NCBI RefSeq assembly: GCF_000744735.1 | Contig: NZ_JQMM01000001.1 | Location: forward strand, 1,674,001-1,738,000 | Origin: Porticoccus hydrocarbonoclasticus MCTG13d | GTDB lineage: Bacteria > Pseudomonadota > Gammaproteobacteria > Pseudomonadales > Porticoccaceae | DNA: 64,000 nucleotides | Direction of reading: 5' to 3' | Part shown: positions 10,548 through 18,163 of the stretch, piece by piece | How positions within the stretch are numbered: the first letter of the stretch is position 1 | Layout of the letters: every line of letters starts with the position of its first letter | Notes under the pieces: generated by a model | What the model saw: the letters and a program-made list of their open reading frames with translations, nothing else | What the model was told of the DNA's origin: nothing | Databases searched by the model: none | Made by a program: the position numbers and the translations under genes

Positions 10548-11366
10548 TCAGGCGGTTGTTGTTTTCTCCAGAAATCCAAGATGTTTCTGTACCAGTTGCA
10601 GGGTTGGCTTAAACAGTTTCGGTGATGCACAGACAATATTTCCACTCTCCATAAATCCGTCGCCCCCTCTGAAATCGCTGACCAGGCCGCCCGCTTCTTT
10701 TACTAGCAATACCCCGGCCGCAATATCCCAAGGCTTCAGGTTCATTTCCCAGAAAGCATCGAAACGGCCAGCAGCCAGATAGGCCAGGTCGAGTGAGGCA
10801 ACCCCGAGGCGTCTGATACCCGACGACTCTTTAGCCAGATCGGACAAGCAGGCCAGATAGGGTTCCATAAATGCTATTGATGGCCGGTTGAAGGGTATAC
10901 CAGTAGCAATCACTGCGCCGGCCAGTCCAACCCGACCCGACACCCGAAGACGCTTGCCGTTCAGAAATGCGCCATGGCCACGACTGGCAGTAAACTCCTC
11001 AAGGCGCATTGGATCGAAAACGACACCGTGTTCAAGGCGACCTTTGTGTCGGCAGCCAATGGATACCGCAAAATGTGGAATACCGTGAATGAAATTGGTC
11101 GTGCCATCAAGTGGATCAATAATCCACTGGTAGTCACTGTCGTTGCCTTCAAGTAGTCCCGACTCTTCTCCTAGGATAGTGTGGTCCGGGAATGCCTTGC
11201 GAAGATGGTAGATGATTTCCTTTTCTGCAGCATGGTCAATTTCGGTGACGAAATCGTTGCGGCCCTTTTCGTCGATCCTGATCAGATCTACTCGTTCCGT
11301 GGCGCGGGCGATCATTTCCCCGGCCTTACGTGCAGCGCGGAGGGCGATATTGACCATGGGTTCCAT
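10548..11366 (-). CDS. suhB: Inositol-1-monophosphatase SuhB
   Basis: SuhB is an inositol monophosphatase-fold protein. In E. coli it also acts in rRNA antitermination complexes. The 272 residues carry the metal-binding signature WIIDPLDGTTNFIHG (about residues 81-95), GEESG upstream of it, and the C-terminal WDIAAGVLLVKEAGG. It faces rpoS convergently; its stop overlaps an ACCGCCTG/CAGGCGGT inverted repeat (10519-10556) that could terminate rpoS weakly. It is divergent from trmJ, the usual suhB/trmJ arrangement. Confidence 0.96.
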   Translation of the reverse strand: MEPMVNIALRAARKAGEMIARATERVDLIRIDEKGRNDFVTEIDHAAEKEIIYHLRKAFPDHTILGEESGLLEGNDSDYQWIIDPLDGTTNFIHGIPHFAVSIGCRHKGRLEHGVVFDPMRLEEFTASRGHGAFLNGKRLRVSGRVGLAGAVIATGIPFNRPSIAFMEPYLACLSDLAKESSGIRRLGVASLDLAYLAAGRFDAFWEMNLKPWDIAAGVLLVKEAGGLVSDFRGGDGFMESGNIVCASPKLFKPTLQLVQKHLGFLEKTTTA

Positions 11367-11556: not shown

Positions 11557-12324
11557 ATGAGTTATTTTGATAGCGTGCGAATTGTGCTGGTTAATAGCAC
11601 TCATCCCGGAAATATCGGCGGGGCGGCTCGCGCCATAAAAAATATGGGATTGTCTAGGCTGTATCTGGTTGCGCCCAGAGACTTCCCTGCTGACCGGGCA
11701 GTCTGGCGGGCGGCGAATGCTGTCGATGTGCTGGATAACGCGATTGTCGTCGAAAATCTTGATGAGGCTATAGCCGGTTGTGGTCTGGTGGTGGGCACCA
11801 GTGCCCGAGGGCGCCGTATTCCCTGGCCGTTATTGAACCCCCGTGAGTGCGGCGAACGCGTCTGGTTGGAGGCGGCACACCACGATGTGGCAATCGTTTT
11901 TGGCAGGGAAGACCGAGGGCTCACCAATGAGGAGCTGCAAAAGTGTAACTATCATGTGCACATTCCCTCCAACCCGGAATACAGTTCTTTGAATCTGGCT
12001 GCGGCTGTTCAGGTGCTGTGCTACGAAGTGCGTATGGCGTCATTGTCTGCAGCCCAGAGTGAATCGCCCCCATTACCCGACTGGGATTTGCCCCCTGCCA
12101 GGGCAGAAGATCTCGAGTTGTATTTTCAGCATTTGGAGCAGGCGTTGGTTGATCTCGGTTTCCATGACCGTGAAAATCCCCGCCAAACCATGACCCGCTT
12201 GCGACGCCTGTACGGCCGAATCCGAATGGATGAAATGGAATTGTCGATTCTCCGGGGTGTACTTACGTCAATTCAGAATGCGGTACATCGCATGCAAAGA
12301 GTCTTGCAGAAAAAAACCGATTGA
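11557..12324 (+). CDS. trmJ: tRNA (cytidine/uridine-2'-O-)-methyltransferase TrmJ
   Basis: TrmJ methylates the ribose of position 32 in several tRNAs. The 255-residue protein has the SPOUT knot: N-terminal VRIVLVNSTHPGNIGGAARAIKNMG, the SAM-binding FGREDRGLTNEEL (about residues 114-126) and SSLNLAAAVQVLCYEV, followed by the TrmJ-specific C-terminal helical extension. It sits just upstream of iscR, its usual neighbour. Confidence 0.96.
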   Translation: MSYFDSVRIVLVNSTHPGNIGGAARAIKNMGLSRLYLVAPRDFPADRAVWRAANAVDVLDNAIVVENLDEAIAGCGLVVGTSARGRRIPWPLLNPRECGERVWLEAAHHDVAIVFGREDRGLTNEELQKCNYHVHIPSNPEYSSLNLAAAVQVLCYEVRMASLSAAQSESPPLPDWDLPPARAEDLELYFQHLEQALVDLGFHDRENPRQTMTRLRRLYGRIRMDEMELSILRGVLTSIQNAVHRMQRVLQKKTD

Positions 12325-12375
12325 TAATGTTTCAGTCCGTGATGAAATAACCCACTAAATGAGTATGTTATTTAA

Positions 12376-12404
12376 TTGACTGAAATACTTGGTTTTTACA
12401 TAAT
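12376..12404 (+). promoter_or_regulatory. Sigma-70 promoter of iscR-iscS, possible IscR operator
   Basis: TTGACT (12376-12381), a 17-nt spacer and CATAAT (12399-12404) form a strong sigma-70 promoter, 43 nt before the iscR start. TTGACTGAAATACTTGG overlapping the -35 box is a partial match to a type 1 IscR operator half-site pair, as in E. coli where IscR represses its own operon; that reading is inference. Nested inverted repeats (TTTCAGTC 12330 with GACTGAAA 12378; AAATAAC 12345 with GTTATTT 12367) reach into the promoter. Confidence 0.7.
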
Positions 12405-12446: not shown

Positions 12447-12914
12447 ATGCGGCTGACAACTCGTGGTCGATACGCGGTCACAGCCATGCTGGATTTGGCG
12501 TTAAATAACGAATGCGGGCCAATTAGTCTGGCGGACATTTCCCATCGGCAGGAAATTTCGCTTTCCTATTTGGAGCAATTGTTTGCCAAATTGCGTCAGA
12601 ACAATCTGGTGAGTAGTGTTCGTGGCCCCGGTGGCGGCTATTGTCTGGCTCGAAGCAGTGATGCCATCAGTGTTGCCGAAATTATTGATGCTGTGAATGA
12701 ATCTATTGATGCGACCAGTTGTAGTGGCAAGGGTAATTGCCACAACGGTGATATATGTTTGACCCATCATCTCTGGGACGATCTGAGCCGTCAAATTCAT
12801 CGTTTCCTCAGTGGTATTTCTCTGGACAGCCTGGTGCATCAACAGGAAGTGCAAATTGTCATGTTGCGCCAAAACGATCAGGACGATGTCAATTCAGGCT
12901 GCGCAAAAGTTTAG
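12447..12914 (+). CDS. iscR: Fe-S cluster regulator IscR
   Basis: IscR is an Rrf2-family repressor/activator that senses Fe-S status through its own [2Fe-2S] cluster. From the ATG at 12447 it has 155 residues: a winged helix ([39 protein letters not shown]) and all four cluster ligands, Cys92, Cys98, Cys104 and His107. An upstream in-frame start at 12432 adds only five unconserved residues. The regulator is intact although most of the operon it normally controls is gone, so it may now chiefly regulate genes elsewhere, such as suf (inference). Confidence 0.96.
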
Positions 12915-12924
12915 GAGTCTTTGC

Positions 12925-14139
12925 ATGAAATTGCCTATATATCTCGATTATTCTGCTACCACGCCAGTTGATCCACGGGTGGCTGCCAAGATGTCAGGGT
13001 GTCTTACTAATGACGGCATATTTGGCAACCCGGCCTCGCGTTCGCACTCTTTTGGCTGGCAGGCAGAGGCGGCAGTTGAAGAGGCCAGGACTCAAGTGGC
13101 GGAGCTTGTTAATGCTGACCCACGGGAAATCATCTGGACATCTGGTGCCACTGAGGCGGATAACCTGGCGATTAAGGGTTGTGCCCACTTCAACCAGAAG
13201 AAGGGCAAGCATATTATTACTTCAAAAATCGAGCACAAGGCCGTTTTGGACACTTGTCGACAGTTGGAGCGTGAGGGCTTCGAGGTGACTTATCTCGACC
13301 CTGATCCCGACGGTATTATTCAGCCTCAGGTCGTCGCCGACGCCATTCGTGAAGATACAATCTTGGTTTCGCTAATGCATGTCAACAATGAGATTGGCAC
13401 GATTAACGATATTGCCGCTATCGGTGAGATCTGTCGTGACCGGAGAGTATTTTTTCATGTGGATGCAGCCCAGAGTACCGGCAAACTGCCGATTGATCTG
13501 CAGGCAATGAAAGTGGATTTAATGGCATTTTCCGCCCATAAAACCTACGGTCCAAAGGGGATCGGTGCCCTTTATGTCCGGCGTAAACCGCGTGTGCGCA
13601 TTGAGGCGCAAACCCACGGCGGTGGCCATGAGCGGGGCATGCGCTCCGGTACGCTGCCTACCCACCAGATTGTCGGTATGGGCGAAGCTTTTCGGATAGC
13701 CAGGGAAGAAATGGCCGACGAAAACAAACGGGTACTAGCGCTGCGCAATCGTCTTTGGGATGGCATTCGTGACCTGGACGAGGTGCATCTCAACGGGTCC
13801 ATGCAGCAGCGTATCGCTGGCAATTTAAATGTTAGTTTTGCCTTTGTCGAAGGGGAGTCGTTGATCATGGCGTTGAAGGACCTGGCCGTTTCTTCCGGGT
13901 CTGCCTGTTCCTCAGCGAGCCTTGAACCCTCATATGTATTGCGGGCGCTGGGGCTTGACGATGAGCTGGCACACAGCTCTATCCGTTTTTCCATTGGCCG
14001 CTTTACCACCGTTGAAGAAATTGATTATGCGATTGCCAAAGTGCGTGAGGCAGTTACCAAGTTGCGTGAGTTATCCCCGCGTTGGGATATGTTTAAAGAC
14101 GGTGTCGATCTCAGTCAGGTCGAATGGGCTGCACGTTAG
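12925..14139 (+). CDS. iscS: Cysteine desulfurase IscS
   Basis: IscS is a pyridoxal-phosphate enzyme that takes sulfur from cysteine for Fe-S clusters and tRNA thiolation. From the ATG at 12925 (AGGAG at 12913-12917) it has 404 residues, the same as E. coli. The PLP lysine lies in [15 protein letters not shown] and the persulfide cysteine in [14 protein letters not shown]. Nothing suggests decay. Its scaffold partner iscU, 17 nt downstream, is a pseudogene, so retention is better explained by tRNA sulfur transfer or supply to another assembly system (inference). Confidence 0.97.
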
Positions 14140-14156: not shown

Positions 14157-14509
14157 ATGGCATACAGTGAAAAAGTTCTGGACTATTACGAAAATCCCCG
14201 CAACGTTGGCTAGTTAGACGACAAAGCCAGTAATGTCGGGGCCGGCATGGTCGGTGCCCCGGCTGGTGGTGATGTGATGTGCTTGCAGATCCAGGTGAAT
14301 GATCTCGGCATCATCGAAGATGCCAAATTTAAGACCTACGAATGTGATTCAGCTATGGCCTCTTTGAATACCTCAGTGCTGCCTTGGCGTAGGATGGCAA
14401 AGCCCTGATGCGTGACAGGTAGTACCGTTGCCTTGATGATGATCCGGCCCATTGTGGTGAAAAAATCCTTGAAGCCATCCAGATGGCATGGATTGAAGAA
14501 CTCGATTAG
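14157..14509 (+). pseudogene. iscU: Fe-S scaffold iscU, pseudogene
   Basis: The ATG at 14157 starts MAYSEKVLDYYENPRNVG, nearly identical to IscU, then hits TAG at codon 19 (14211-14213). The same frame continues with NVGAGMVGAPAGGDVM, where the first cluster cysteine (GAPACGD) is Gly, then VNDLGIIEDAKFKTYECDSA, and another stop at TGA about 14407. The tail resumes in a second frame as AHCGEKILEAIQ, corresponding to the His-Cys ligand region, and ends at TAG 14507-14509. The 353-bp span is close to a whole iscU (about 387 bp). Stop, frameshift and a ligand loss together argue against a single sequencing error. Confidence 0.88.
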
Positions 14510-14547
14510 AATGAACCACAGCTTCAATATGCTACCAAGGGGTGTTA

Positions 14548-16383
14548 ATGAGCTCAAAAGAAGAGCTTTATAAAGTACTGGTTGAATCAGTTCCTTACGG
14601 CACCCTTTTCTTTGCTTACGGCGTCTGTATCGATGCCAACAAACATGCACTTGCCCTGTTGGGCTGCGACCTCAAGCAGCTGGTGGGCGCTTCAGTGGAC
14701 AGTATTACCGGTGACGAATCCACGGCGCTTGTCGATCTCAAGTTGCAACTGAAAAAAGCCTTGCGGAACCGTACTGAAAATCTGGACTGGTCATGTCCCG
14801 GTCGTACCGAAACTATCGCTGTCAGTATTGTTTATGTGGGTGACGACAATAGAGAACTGGTAGTTATGCTGCACACTCAGGAATTGTCCTGCGATGTTGC
14901 TTCACCTTCTGTCAGTGAGCCGGGATTGTCCGTCGCCGGTGCTGAATCACTCGAAAATATCGAAGTTGGCTCCCCTGATGTGATATTGCCCGCCAGCGAT
15001 ATTTATGACGGTGCCGATGTTGTCGTCGATGATGAAGATGTCAGCAATCCAGGCGTCAAGCCCTGGGAGGAGTCTGCCAAGGATCACTATTATGACAGTC
15101 TTACGGGTTTGCCCAATCGACAATTGCTGATTCAGTCCATCAGCCGGTATCTGGCCCTCCATGACAATCAACCGATATGTGGTGCCCTGATGATTGTCGA
15201 CCTTGATCACTTCAAGGATATTAATGATTCCTGGGGCAATGCTGTGGGAGATCAGGTGATCAAGAAGATTGGTCAGACGTTGTCTCGCCTTGCTACTGGG
15301 GGTAATGTGCTCGCCCGTATGAGTGGCGATGAGTTTGTGCTTTTTATTCCCCATCTGTCTGATGACTTGTCAAAAGCCGCCTGGAGTGCGCAGTCGTTGG
15401 CCGAAAAGTTGGGTGAAATGGTTGCAAGCCCCCTGTTTCTCGATGGCCATGAAGTCATACTGACTGCAAGTGTCGGTATTGCACTTATTTCAGACAGCGA
15501 CATCAGTGCCGAGCGCGTACTCCAGTTTGCAGATACAGCCATGTACGAGGCGAAGCGCAAGGGCCGCAACAGCATCGCTTTTTTTGATCCCTGTATCTCG
15601 GAGAAAGCGCAGCGGCAGATTGGCATGAATACCCGATTGCGCAAGGCAATGGATAACCACGAGTTTGTGCTCTATATCCAGCCGCAAATTTCTGTTGAGA
15701 CAGGACAGTTGCTGGGTGGTGAGGCGCTATTGCGCTGGATGAATTCGGATAAAATAACCAACATGCCTTCGGAGTTTATTCCGGTACTTGAATCTTCCGG
15801 TCTGATCGTAGACGTAGGCCGGTGGGTTATTCGCACCTCTTGTGAGTACATCCGGAATTTTATTGATCAGGGTATCTGGCAAGACCACATGCGGCTCGGC
15901 ATCAATATCAGCCCACGCCAGTTTCGCGATCCCCAATTGCTGGATATCGTCCAGCACAGCATGAGCAGTTACAACATAGACCCAAGCTTCCTCAATTTCG
16001 AAGTCACGGAAAATCTGGTCATTGAAGATGTGGATGAGGCCATTCGCAAGATGGAGGCAATCAAATCGCTGGGTTCCATGTTTTCAATTGATGATTTCGG
16101 TATTGGCTACTCTTCCATGATTTACCTGAAGCGTCTGCCGTTTGACCAGCTGAAGATTGATCGTGAGTTTATCCGAAATATTCATCGCGACCCCGAGAGC
16201 CGGGGTATTGTGGAAGCTATCATGGCTGTGTCAAAGCAGTATGGTTTGAAAGTTACCGCGGAGGGGGTCGAGACACCGGAAGCCCTTGAGATACTTCGGG
16301 AGCTGGGTTGCCATTCCTATCAGGGTGCCCACTTCAGTATGCCTATTTCCTGTGATCGTTTTACCAAACTGCTGGCTGCCTGA
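14548..16383 (+). CDS. GGDEF-EAL cyclic-di-GMP signalling protein with N-terminal PAS-like domain
   Basis: The protein is predicted to make and/or degrade cyclic di-GMP. From the ATG at 14548 (AAGGGG upstream) it has 611 residues with no membrane segment: an N-terminal PAS-like sensor (about 1-120), an acidic Ser/Asp-rich linker, a GGDEF domain (about 185-345) whose active-site motif reads SGDEF, and an EAL domain (about 360-610) with EALLRW, NISPRQF, DDFGIGYSS and the catalytic-site stretch KIDREFI. The EAL residues look complete; the cyclase site is one residue off consensus. It occupies the place where iscA-hscBA-fdx-iscX normally lie. Confidence 0.93.
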   Translation: MSSKEELYKVLVESVPYGTLFFAYGVCIDANKHALALLGCDLKQLVGASVDSITGDESTALVDLKLQLKKALRNRTENLDWSCPGRTETIAVSIVYVGDDNRELVVMLHTQELSCDVASPSVSEPGLSVAGAESLENIEVGSPDVILPASDIYDGADVVVDDEDVSNPGVKPWEESAKDHYYDSLTGLPNRQLLIQSISRYLALHDNQPICGALMIVDLDHFKDINDSWGNAVGDQVIKKIGQTLSRLATGGNVLARMSGDEFVLFIPHLSDDLSKAAWSAQSLAEKLGEMVASPLFLDGHEVILTASVGIALISDSDISAERVLQFADTAMYEAKRKGRNSIAFFDPCISEKAQRQIGMNTRLRKAMDNHEFVLYIQPQISVETGQLLGGEALLRWMNSDKITNMPSEFIPVLESSGLIVDVGRWVIRTSCEYIRNFIDQGIWQDHMRLGINISPRQFRDPQLLDIVQHSMSSYNIDPSFLNFEVTENLVIEDVDEAIRKMEAIKSLGSMFSIDDFGIGYSSMIYLKRLPFDQLKIDREFIRNIHRDPESRGIVEAIMAVSKQYGLKVTAEGVETPEALEILRELGCHSYQGAHFSMPISCDRFTKLLAA

Positions 16384-16533: not shown

Positions 16534-16959
16534 ATGGCTATAGAACGCACCCTTTCCATCATCAAGCCAGATGCAGTGAGCAAAAATGTTATTGGTCAGA
16601 TCTATTCACGGTTTGAAAAGGCCGGCCTGAAAGTCGTTGCAGCAAAAATGATGCACCTTTCCGAAGAAAAAGCCGGTGGCTTTTATGCGGAGCACAAAGA
16701 ACGCCCGTTTTATACCGATTTGGTGGGCTTTATGACCTCTGGCCCTGTCATGATCCAGGTGCTTGAGGGCGAAAATGCTGTGATCGTTAACCGCGATCTT
16801 ATGGGGGCAACGAATCCAAAAGAAGCGGCAGCTGGCACTATTCGTGCCGACTTTGCCGAATCGATTGACGCCAATGCTGTGCACGGGTCAGATTCACCCG
16901 CTTCAGCCGCCCGTGAAATTTCCTATTTCTTTGATGATGGTGAAATTTGCCCACGCTAG
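16534..16959 (+). CDS. ndk: Nucleoside diphosphate kinase
   Basis: Ndk equilibrates nucleoside di- and triphosphates through a phosphohistidine. The 141 residues are full length: [15 protein letters not shown] at the start, the nucleotide-binding [19 protein letters not shown] and the active-site histidine in [12 protein letters not shown]. ndk followed by rlmN is the standard continuation of the gammaproteobacterial isc operon, which anchors the missing genes to the interval just upstream. Confidence 0.98.
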
Positions 16960-16996: not shown

Positions 16997-18163
16997 ATGA
17001 GTCTGATTCTTGCCGATGTCAATACCGCCGTTGAGCCCCAGGGGTTGAAAACCAACCTGCTGGGGCTTTCTGCTGAAAAATTGTCAGACTTTTTTGTTAA
17101 TACGCTGGCAGAAAAACCCTTTCGTGCTTCGCAAATATTGAAGTGGATACACCAGCTGGGTGTGGATGACTTTGATCAGATGACCAATCTGTCAAAGCCC
17201 CTGCGTCAGAGGCTCAAGCAGGTTGCTGAGATTCGCGCTCCGGAGGTGGTTTCCCAGCAGGATTCTACAGACGGCACTCGAAAATGGCTGATTCGCGTTG
17301 CTGGTGGCAGCTGCATTGAAACAGTGTTCATTCCGGAAAAGGATCGAGGTACGCTCTGTGTCTCATCTCAGGTGGGCTGTTCGCTGGACTGTAGTTTTTG
17401 TGCAACCGGGAAACAGGGATTTAACCGAGATCTGACGGCCGCAGAAATTATTGGACAGGTCTGGATAGCTGCCAAATCATTTGATTCCCTGGGTGCCGGA
17501 AAAGACCGGGTAGTGAGTAATGTCGTCATGATGGGTATGGGTGAGCCGCTACTCAACTTTGAGAACGTTGTCGATGCCATGGGGCTGATGCTTCATGACA
17601 ATGCTTATGGACTGTCAAAGCGCCGGGTGACCTTGAGCACATCCGGTGTCGTTCCGGCACTGGATCGACTCGGCGATGTTTCGGATGTCTCGCTGGCTAT
17701 TTCTCTTCACGCACCCAACGATGCGTTGCGCGATCAGTTGGTGCCGATCAATAAAAAATATCCGATTGCTATGTTGCTTGATTCCGCCCGTCGTTACCTT
17801 GACAAGATGCCTGACGTGCGCCGCAAGATTACTATCGAATATACGATGATGGACCGGATAAATGATCGCGATGAGCATGCGCGGGAGTTGGCCATATTGC
17901 TGAAAGACATTCCCTGTAAAATCAACCTGATTCCGTTTAATCCGTTTACCGGTTCATCCTACAGGCGAGTTACCAACACTGCGCTGAATCGTTTCAGGGA
18001 TATCCTGCATCAGGAGGGATATACCGTGACTGTCCGAACGACTCGTGGAGACGATATTGCAGCGGCCTGTGGCCAGCTCGCCGGTACGGTGAATGACAGG
18101 ACCCGCCGCAGTCAACGCTATCAACAAGAACAGCAAGTAGCGCCCGTGAGGTTTGTGGGTTGA
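16997..18163 (+). CDS. rlmN: Dual-specificity 23S rRNA A2503 / tRNA A37 methyltransferase RlmN
   Basis: RlmN is a radical-SAM enzyme that methylates C2 of adenosine 2503 in 23S rRNA and A37 in some tRNAs. The 388 residues show the cluster motif CSLDCSFC (about residues 127-134), the [15 protein letters not shown]-binding motif and C-terminal [17 protein letters not shown] with the catalytic cysteine. It carries a 4Fe-4S cluster, so this organism must still assemble such clusters despite the broken isc operon. Confidence 0.97.

What the first reader, a model, noticed from the sequence alone, without database searches (positions are those of the whole stretch)
14157..14548. iscU is a pseudogene and the isc operon is truncated after iscS
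Seen: intact iscR (all four cluster ligands) and iscS, then an iscU whose start is near-identical to the family but which has TAG at codon 19, a Cys-to-Gly change in GAPACGD, a second stop and a frame change before the His-Cys region. Known: the usual order is iscRSUA-hscBA-fdx(-iscX)-ndk-rlmN. Here iscA, hscB, hscA, fdx and iscX are absent although ndk-rlmN follow in place. Inference: Fe-S assembly has moved to another system (SUF most likely), IscS is kept for tRNA sulfur transfer, and IscR now serves other promoters. This catches the loss part-way.
Basis: partly seen in the sequence, partly recalled or inferred. Interest (0 to 1): 0.8.

Follow-up and report, generated by a model that had tools for sequence, protein, structure and literature searches.

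The report
Iron-sulfur operon dismantled after SUF arrival
In an oil-degrading marine bacterium the usual iron-sulfur cluster assembly operon has been deleted down to its regulator and its sulfur-supplying enzyme, apparently because a second machinery (SUF) took over, and close relatives show earlier steps of the same takeover.

Summary
Real, with corrections. The genome's only iscU is dead (TAG at codon 19, Cys37 to Gly). The interval 14157-14548 is not one frameshifted iscU but three remnants joined by two large deletions: iscU 5' end (14157-14362), an hscA piece (14360-14436) and the IscX C-terminus (14435-14509). No iscA, hscB or isc-type fdx remains at the locus. An intact suf operon lies 77 kb beyond the window's end. 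Genome length equals that of Porticoccus hydrocarbonoclasticus MCTG13d (PacBio, 291x), so assembly error is very unlikely. Of 17 genomes of the genus, six form one clade with suf at one site: G010 still has an intact isc operon, five have it broken, in three deletion patterns that arose in at least two independent lines. iscR and iscS stay under purifying selection. Across 58 genomes, 18 of 19 without intact IscU have SUF, against 4 of 39 with it. In 12 older SUF-only relatives IscS has lost or altered its C-terminal IscU-docking helix; the window's IscS shows first substitutions there, though one of these did not stop IscU binding in E. coli. ISC/SUF exclusion and lone iscS are known elsewhere; the staged series within one genus seems new. 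IscS serving tRNA thiolation remains inference.

The parts
10548..11366 (-). suhB, conserved left neighbour of the isc locus
   Evidence: ORF; same neighbour in the genus
11557..12324 (+). trmJ, conserved left neighbour
   Evidence: 55% to E. coli TrmJ
12347..12404 (+). iscR promoter block with two IscR type 1-like sites (12347-12371 and around 12377-12393) and CATAAT at 12399
   Evidence: aligned in 16 genus genomes and E. coli; read
12447..12914 (+). iscR, intact, Fe-S ligands present
   Evidence: Rrf2; ligands
12925..14139 (+). iscS, intact, 404 aa; Leu386 to Arg and final His to Arg in the IscU-docking tail
   Evidence: TIGR02006 737.9 bits, over cut-off; residues
14157..14362 (+). iscU 5' remnant, codons 1-69, TAG at 14211, Cys37 to Gly at 14265
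   Evidence: 89% to G010
14360..14436 (+). hscA remnant, 77 bp
   Evidence: 84% to G010 hscA, E 2.7e-20
14435..14509 (+). iscX C-terminal remnant (residues 43-66) with its stop
   Evidence: 98% to G010; 54% to E. coli IscX, E 2.8e-9
14548..16383 (+). PAS-GGDEF-EAL protein, ancestral neighbour after iscX
   Evidence: Pfam; 13 of 14 readable genus genomes
16534..16959 (+). ndk, conserved right neighbour
16997..18163 (+). rlmN, conserved right neighbour

Best explanation
An ancestor of a six-member Porticoccus clade carried, besides its isc operon, a complete suf operon (iscR2-sufBCDSA-sufT-sufE) at another site, most simply gained by transfer. With two machineries present, the ISC scaffold, chaperone and ferredoxin genes became dispensable and were removed by deletions, in three patterns and at least two independent lines. 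iscR and iscS were kept: IscS as sulfur donor for partners other than IscU (tRNA thiolation most likely), IscR as regulator of its own operon and perhaps of suf. In the window genome ISC is finished, and the IscU-docking tail of IscS shows first substitutions. Shown: the deletions, the clade, the co-occurrence with suf, purifying selection on iscR and iscS, the tail differences. Inferred: that suf caused the decay, the present role of IscS, control of suf by IscR, and loss of constraint on the tail.
For: Remnants and junctions; only iscU in the genome is broken; suf intact; suf in 6 of 17 genus genomes, which form one clade; 5 of 5 genomes with broken iscU have suf, 1 of 12 others does; 18 of 19 genomes without intact IscU have SUF against 4 of 39 with it; dN/dS of iscR 0.00-0.06 and iscS 0.036-0.142 over seven pairs; loss of third-position bias in the iscU remnant for G000-G005 (P 0.018); tail differences. 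Published: E. coli SUF can stand in for ISC in P. aeruginosa under normal, not stress, conditions (PMC11559095, passages).
Against: The suf+ genomes are one clade, so the genus counts are not independent. Four of the five broken isc loci besides none in the window are from draft genomes; small lesions in G012 could be errors (its large deletions hardly). The IscS change L386R left IscU binding intact in E. coli pull-downs. dN/dS and codon-position counts are small samples; G010-G000 differences in iscU are still 7/3/14 by codon position, as expected if much of that divergence predates the loss. The IscR consensus is not met in the window's suf promoter.
Confidence: 0.85

Rival explanations
1. 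Suf is older than this clade: the family or genus ancestor had both systems, ISC-only species lost suf, and this clade lost isc. Same decay, no recent transfer.
For: The clade's suf is sister to that of same-family genomes G018, G022, G033 (support 73, 79).
Against: Suf is absent from 11 of 17 genus genomes and would need many losses; it sits at another site than in G018/G022/G033, next to a protein found only in the six suf+ genomes.
Confidence: 0.2
2. The loss was favoured, not merely tolerated: SUF alone is better for a strictly aerobic, iron-limited marine hydrocarbon degrader, so ISC was selected against.
For: Deletions in at least two independent lines and three patterns on short branches; exclusion of the two systems across relatives.
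Against: G010 keeps both; redundancy plus deletion bias predicts the same pattern; no fitness data.
Confidence: 0.3
3. The stop, deletions and fusions are assembly errors.
For: Some relatives are drafts; G015 iscS has a run of N and G001 iscU is split at contig ends.
Against: Published PacBio assembly at 291x, one contig (if the window is that strain); the same two junctions occur in G005 and G015.
Confidence: 0.02
4. ISC still works in this genome with another scaffold or carrier in place of IscU.
For: Three A-type-carrier matches remain.
Against: No second NifU_N match; HscB, isc-type HscA and isc-type ferredoxin are missing too.
Confidence: 0.03

Closest known systems
SUF with a lone iscS in Mycobacterium tuberculosis (PMC10848736, passages)
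   Same: Complete SUF; ISC reduced to its cysteine desulfurase, which is kept and has a role.
   Different: There neither IscU nor chaperones surround iscS; here iscR is kept, iscU/hscA/iscX remnants are still readable, and relatives show intermediates.
isc-suf operon of Rhodobacter (iscRS plus suf; PMC6956336, passages)
   Same: iscR and iscS beside a SUF system with SufS as second desulfurase. Relatives such as G022 have this layout at the isc locus.
   Different: In the window genome suf is elsewhere, with its own IscR-like regulator.
ISC/SUF mutual exclusion in Gammaproteobacteria and SUF-only Pseudomonadales (PMC10631705 and PMC11559095, passages)
   Same: Same outcome at the level of presence and absence.
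   Different: Those passages describe end states; here the decay is visible within one genus.
ISC replaced by transferred SUF in Monocercomonoides (PMC5348982, passages)
   Same: Acquired SUF, ISC lost.
   Different: A eukaryote; old event; ISC was mitochondrial.

Membership tests
ISC system (iscRSUA-hscBA-fdx-iscX) | Intact scaffold IscU | tested here: not met
   Only NifU_N match in the genome is the broken remnant
ISC system (iscRSUA-hscBA-fdx-iscX) | HscA, HscB and isc ferredoxin | tested here: not met
ISC system (iscRSUA-hscBA-fdx-iscX) | IscS with active site | tested here: met
SUF system (SufBCDSE type) | SufB, SufC, SufD, SufS, SufE open with functional residues | tested here: met
   (residue numbers recalled)
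SUF system (SufBCDSE type) | It builds the cell's Fe-S clusters | not testable with these tools
   needs depletion in MCTG13d
Pseudogene | Loss of coding constraint | tested here: met
   stop, loss of Cys37, deletion of codons after 69; codon-position counts 0/4/4 against 5/5/60 in iscS, few changes
Lone IscS serving tRNA thiolation | TusA-facing residues of IscS kept | tested here: met
   In the window genome R39, W45, R55, R220, R237 kept; Glu at 52 and Ala at 49 as in most IscU-bearing relatives
Lone IscS serving tRNA thiolation | TusA, MnmA, ThiI present in the genome | not tested

The most novel reading that the evidence does not exclude
Once IscU is gone, the hub enzyme IscS sheds its docking tail step by step, and iscR-iscS acts as a chassis into which either scaffold module can be fitted. 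Stages seen within one order: both machineries intact (G010); isc partly deleted (G012); remnants with IscS tail unchanged (G002); first tail substitutions (window, G005, G015); scrambled tail (G029); tail gone and suf sitting in the place of iscUA-hscBA-fdx-iscX (G018, G022, G042, G045; G053 with a partial tail).
Probability: 0.4. Interest if true: 0.68.

Novelty: new member of a known kind. Interest (0 to 1): 0.52.

Why it matters
How a cell exchanges one essential machinery for an unrelated one is usually inferred from end points. Here closely related genomes (92.4-97.5% DNA identity over six flanking genes) hold the intermediates, including one with both systems intact, so the order of loss, its repeatability, and the fate of a hub enzyme that lost its main partner can be tested directly. 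MCTG13d is a cultured isolate.

Tried and rejected
Rejected: iscS broken in G015; the gap is a run of N. Rejected: iscU broken in G001; it is split over two contig ends. Rejected: the GGDEF-EAL gene as the insert that destroyed the operon. My first count of three independent losses was cut to at least two: G002's deletion covers both deletions of its sister G012 and could lie on top of them. The G002 'sufB' used was a match to SufD (its contig ends inside the operon); that value was dropped and G002 left out of the suf tree. A recalled IscR type 1 consensus gave no match in the window genome's suf region at 3 mismatches, though G010 and E. coli did. G029 shows no isc remnant beside iscA that I could trust (best E 0.018). 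The class-wide IscS search listed no tails for low-scoring genomes, so the tail test rests on the 58-genome set. The IscS tree groups tail-less IscS of different families (support 76) against the housekeeping tree: these may have travelled with suf or attract each other as long branches, so the 12 cases are not 12 independent tail losses. Structure prediction, Rfam and viral collections were not used.

Full report
What is there. The window lies in a one-contig genome of 2,474,654 bases, exactly the length published for Porticoccus hydrocarbonoclasticus MCTG13d, assembled from PacBio reads at 291x into one contig (PMC4472908, whole text). That the window is this strain is inferred from the length; a 98% protein match to a record titled uncultured Porticoccus sp. 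agrees. iscR and iscS are intact with their ligands and catalytic residues. iscU starts at 14157, has TAG at codon 19 and Gly for Cys37.

Correction of the anatomy. Compared with the intact operon of sister genome G010, the stretch called iscU is iscU codons 1-69 (14157-14362), 77 bp of hscA (14360-14436) and the last 24 codons of iscX with its stop (14435-14509). The iscX piece is recognised directly with E. coli IscX (54%, E 2.8e-9); the hscA piece is not and rests on the match to G010 (84%, E 2.7e-20). Deletions of about 2.8 and 0.66 kb relative to G010 explain what lies between. The local alignments overlap at the junctions by 3 and 2 bp here, 9 and 2 bp in G005 and G015, 2 bp in G002, 7 and 4 bp in G012. 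This fits deletion at short matches, but overlaps of 2-4 bp can be chance.

The rest of the genome. NifU_N: one match, the remnant. HSCB_C: none. HscA model: three matches, all below cut-off. fdx_isc: two matches, both below cut-off. A-type carriers: three matches, which by recall and position I read as ErpA-like, SufA and NfuA-like. IscX and CyaY were not searched for genome-wide. SUF: iscR2-sufB-C-D-S-A-sufT-sufE at contig 1815326-1822132, 77 kb beyond the window's end; the genes are open, and the 19 recalled functional positions tested in SufA, B, C, D, S and E equal those of E. coli.

The genus. All 17 held genomes were searched. Suf occurs in 6 of 17: G000 (the window's), G002, G005, G010, G012, G015, with the same right-hand neighbour (G002 only 25 residues of it, its contig ends). 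That neighbour occurs in exactly these six of 17. G015 has about 7 kb to the left of suf that does not match the others. iscU: 11 of 17 intact, G001 split over contig ends, 5 broken. All five broken ones have suf; of the 12 others only G010 does (Fisher p 0.001, not corrected for relatedness). G010: iscU, iscA, hscB, hscA, fdx and iscX are all open. G012: iscA and iscX open; iscU with one-base lesions; hscB with two stops near its end; hscA with two deletions, the second running into fdx. G002: one deletion joins iscU codon 45 to the start of iscX, which has a stop of its own. G005 and G015: the same two junctions as the window.

How many losses. The six form a clade (support 100). Housekeeping proteins put G010 outside the other five (97), with G000+G005+G015 (92) and G002+G012 (91); the DNA tree leaves G010's place open (53). 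The window group keeps an hscA piece that G002 and G012 have deleted, and has deleted parts that each of them keeps, so the window group and the G002/G012 line were deleted independently. G002's single deletion covers both of G012's, so these two may be nested. Hence three patterns, at least two independent lines; whether one earlier inactivating event was common to all five is open.

Selection. Over seven pairs of the six genomes dN/dS is 0.00-0.06 for iscR and 0.036-0.142 for iscS (G015 cut to 360 codons), like the five neighbours (0.012-0.239). In the iscU remnant G000 and G005 differ at codon positions 0/4/4, against 5/5/60 in iscS (P of at least four non-third changes in eight is 0.018 at the iscS rate). 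Other pairs: G000-G015 1/4/4, G005-G015 2/0/2, G010-G000 7/3/14, G010-G005 7/5/13; the last two still carry divergence from before the loss. In G010 fdx, iscX, hscB, hscA and iscA are further from three outgroups than in G007 and G003, but so are iscR, iscS, ndk and rlmN to a lesser degree, and iscU is not: at most a weak hint of relaxation.

Wider set. In 58 genomes (own plus 57 relatives) 39 have an intact IscU, counting G001, and 19 do not; SUF is present in 4 of 39 and in 18 of 19 (Fisher p 3e-10, not corrected for relatedness). The exception, G030, has a contig that ends inside iscS. In five SUF-only relatives (G018, G022, G042, G045, G053) suf lies between the trmJ/iscR/iscS side and ndk, in place of iscUA-hscBA-fdx-iscX (in G045 iscS precedes iscR; in G042 ndk is 4.5 kb further). 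G033 and G057 show the left side only; G041 has iscRS-suf without these neighbours in the stretch read. In G039, G044, G055 and G050 iscS is followed by ndk (G050 with a sufA-like gene between) and the suf operon is elsewhere. G029 keeps iscR-iscS-iscA at the locus, with a SufU-type suf elsewhere. The clade's suf is nearest that of G018/G022/G033 of the same family (support 73).

The IscS tail. In E. coli, IscU contacts helix 379-391 of IscS, and IscS lacking 376-404 did not bind IscU (PMC2854127, passages; its table gives 'Low' for the deletion 374-404). In 37 of 37 IscU-bearing relatives with a readable IscS, residue 386 is Leu and the last residue His (G025 and G051 had no locus, E. coli not counted). 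Of 12 older SUF-only genomes none has Leu386 and 11 lack 387-391; G053 has a partial, altered tail. G029 has Gln386 and a scrambled tail. The window, G005 and G015 have Arg386 (G015 read), and the window's protein ends in Arg; G002 and G012 keep Leu and His. TusA-facing W45, R55, R220 and R237 are kept in 12 of 12 and R39 in 11 of 12 of the older SUF-only genomes. Against over-reading: L386R in E. coli IscS still pulled down IscU, ThiI and IscX, and the authors place the mutated residues outside the IscU interface (PMC2854127 section 9, first part). In a class-wide sample, 168 of 370 genomes have IscS over the cut-off, and 3 of these lack a NifU_N match at 1e-30: the window's, G217 and G409; the latter two are drafts and were not checked. 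In the other direction 11 genomes have such a NifU_N match with IscS below the cut-off.

Regulation. The block upstream of iscR is conserved in 16 genus genomes (G004's contig starts inside iscS) and resembles that of E. coli. Five suf promoters (G002 not readable) share TTGACTAAATTACT.GG, G012 with one change. In G010 this matches a recalled type 1 consensus with 3 mismatches (0 of 200 shuffles reach that), as one of E. coli's own sites does; in the window genome it does not reach that limit. IscR2 is an Rrf2 protein with the same Cys-Cys-Cys-His pattern by eye. My reading, inferred: SUF now matures IscR, which keeps its own operon (and perhaps suf) in step with cluster supply.

Relation to print. 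ISC/SUF exclusion, SUF-only Pseudomonadales, lone iscS beside SUF and iscRS-suf operons are published (passages of PMC10631705, PMC11559095, PMC10848736, PMC6956336). My searches listed no paper on Fe-S assembly in Porticoccus or on staged isc loss within a genus; they cover open-licence papers only, show a capped list, and could hide papers holding just two of its terms. So the kind is known; this is a new member with unusually complete intermediates.

Noticed in passing
L061-L066 (suf loci): Synonymous divergence of suf genes is higher than of most isc-locus neighbours in the closest pairs: G005-G015 suf 0.13-0.46 against 0.04-0.07 in five of seven other genes (pilW 0.15, ndk 0.25); G002-G012 sufD, S, A, E 0.29-0.52 against 0.03-0.23. 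Allelic exchange at suf or mixed drafts are possible.
   Followed up: no
L063 182-7122: In G015 about 7 kb left of suf does not match the left-hand genes found in G000, G005, G012 and G010.
   Followed up: no
L061 14232-16497: Two proteins right of suf without Pfam match; the first occurs only in the six suf-bearing genomes of 17.
   Followed up: partly
L164 6617-10798 (G029): A separate ISC dismantling in the same family: iscR-iscS-iscA kept, other isc genes gone, SufU-type suf elsewhere, IscS tail scrambled.
   Followed up: partly
L148, L149, L155, L157, L160: Suf cassette sits exactly in the isc position between iscS/iscR and ndk in five SUF-only relatives.
   Followed up: partly
L069 / G002 C17 6195-6300: In-frame joining of 45 IscU codons to IscX, with CTG in place of the iscU start codon and a stop inside iscX.
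   Followed up: yes
window 14548-16383: PAS-GGDEF-EAL gene between iscX and ndk is kept in most of the genus and in some family members; why a c-di-GMP protein sits there is unknown.
   Followed up: no
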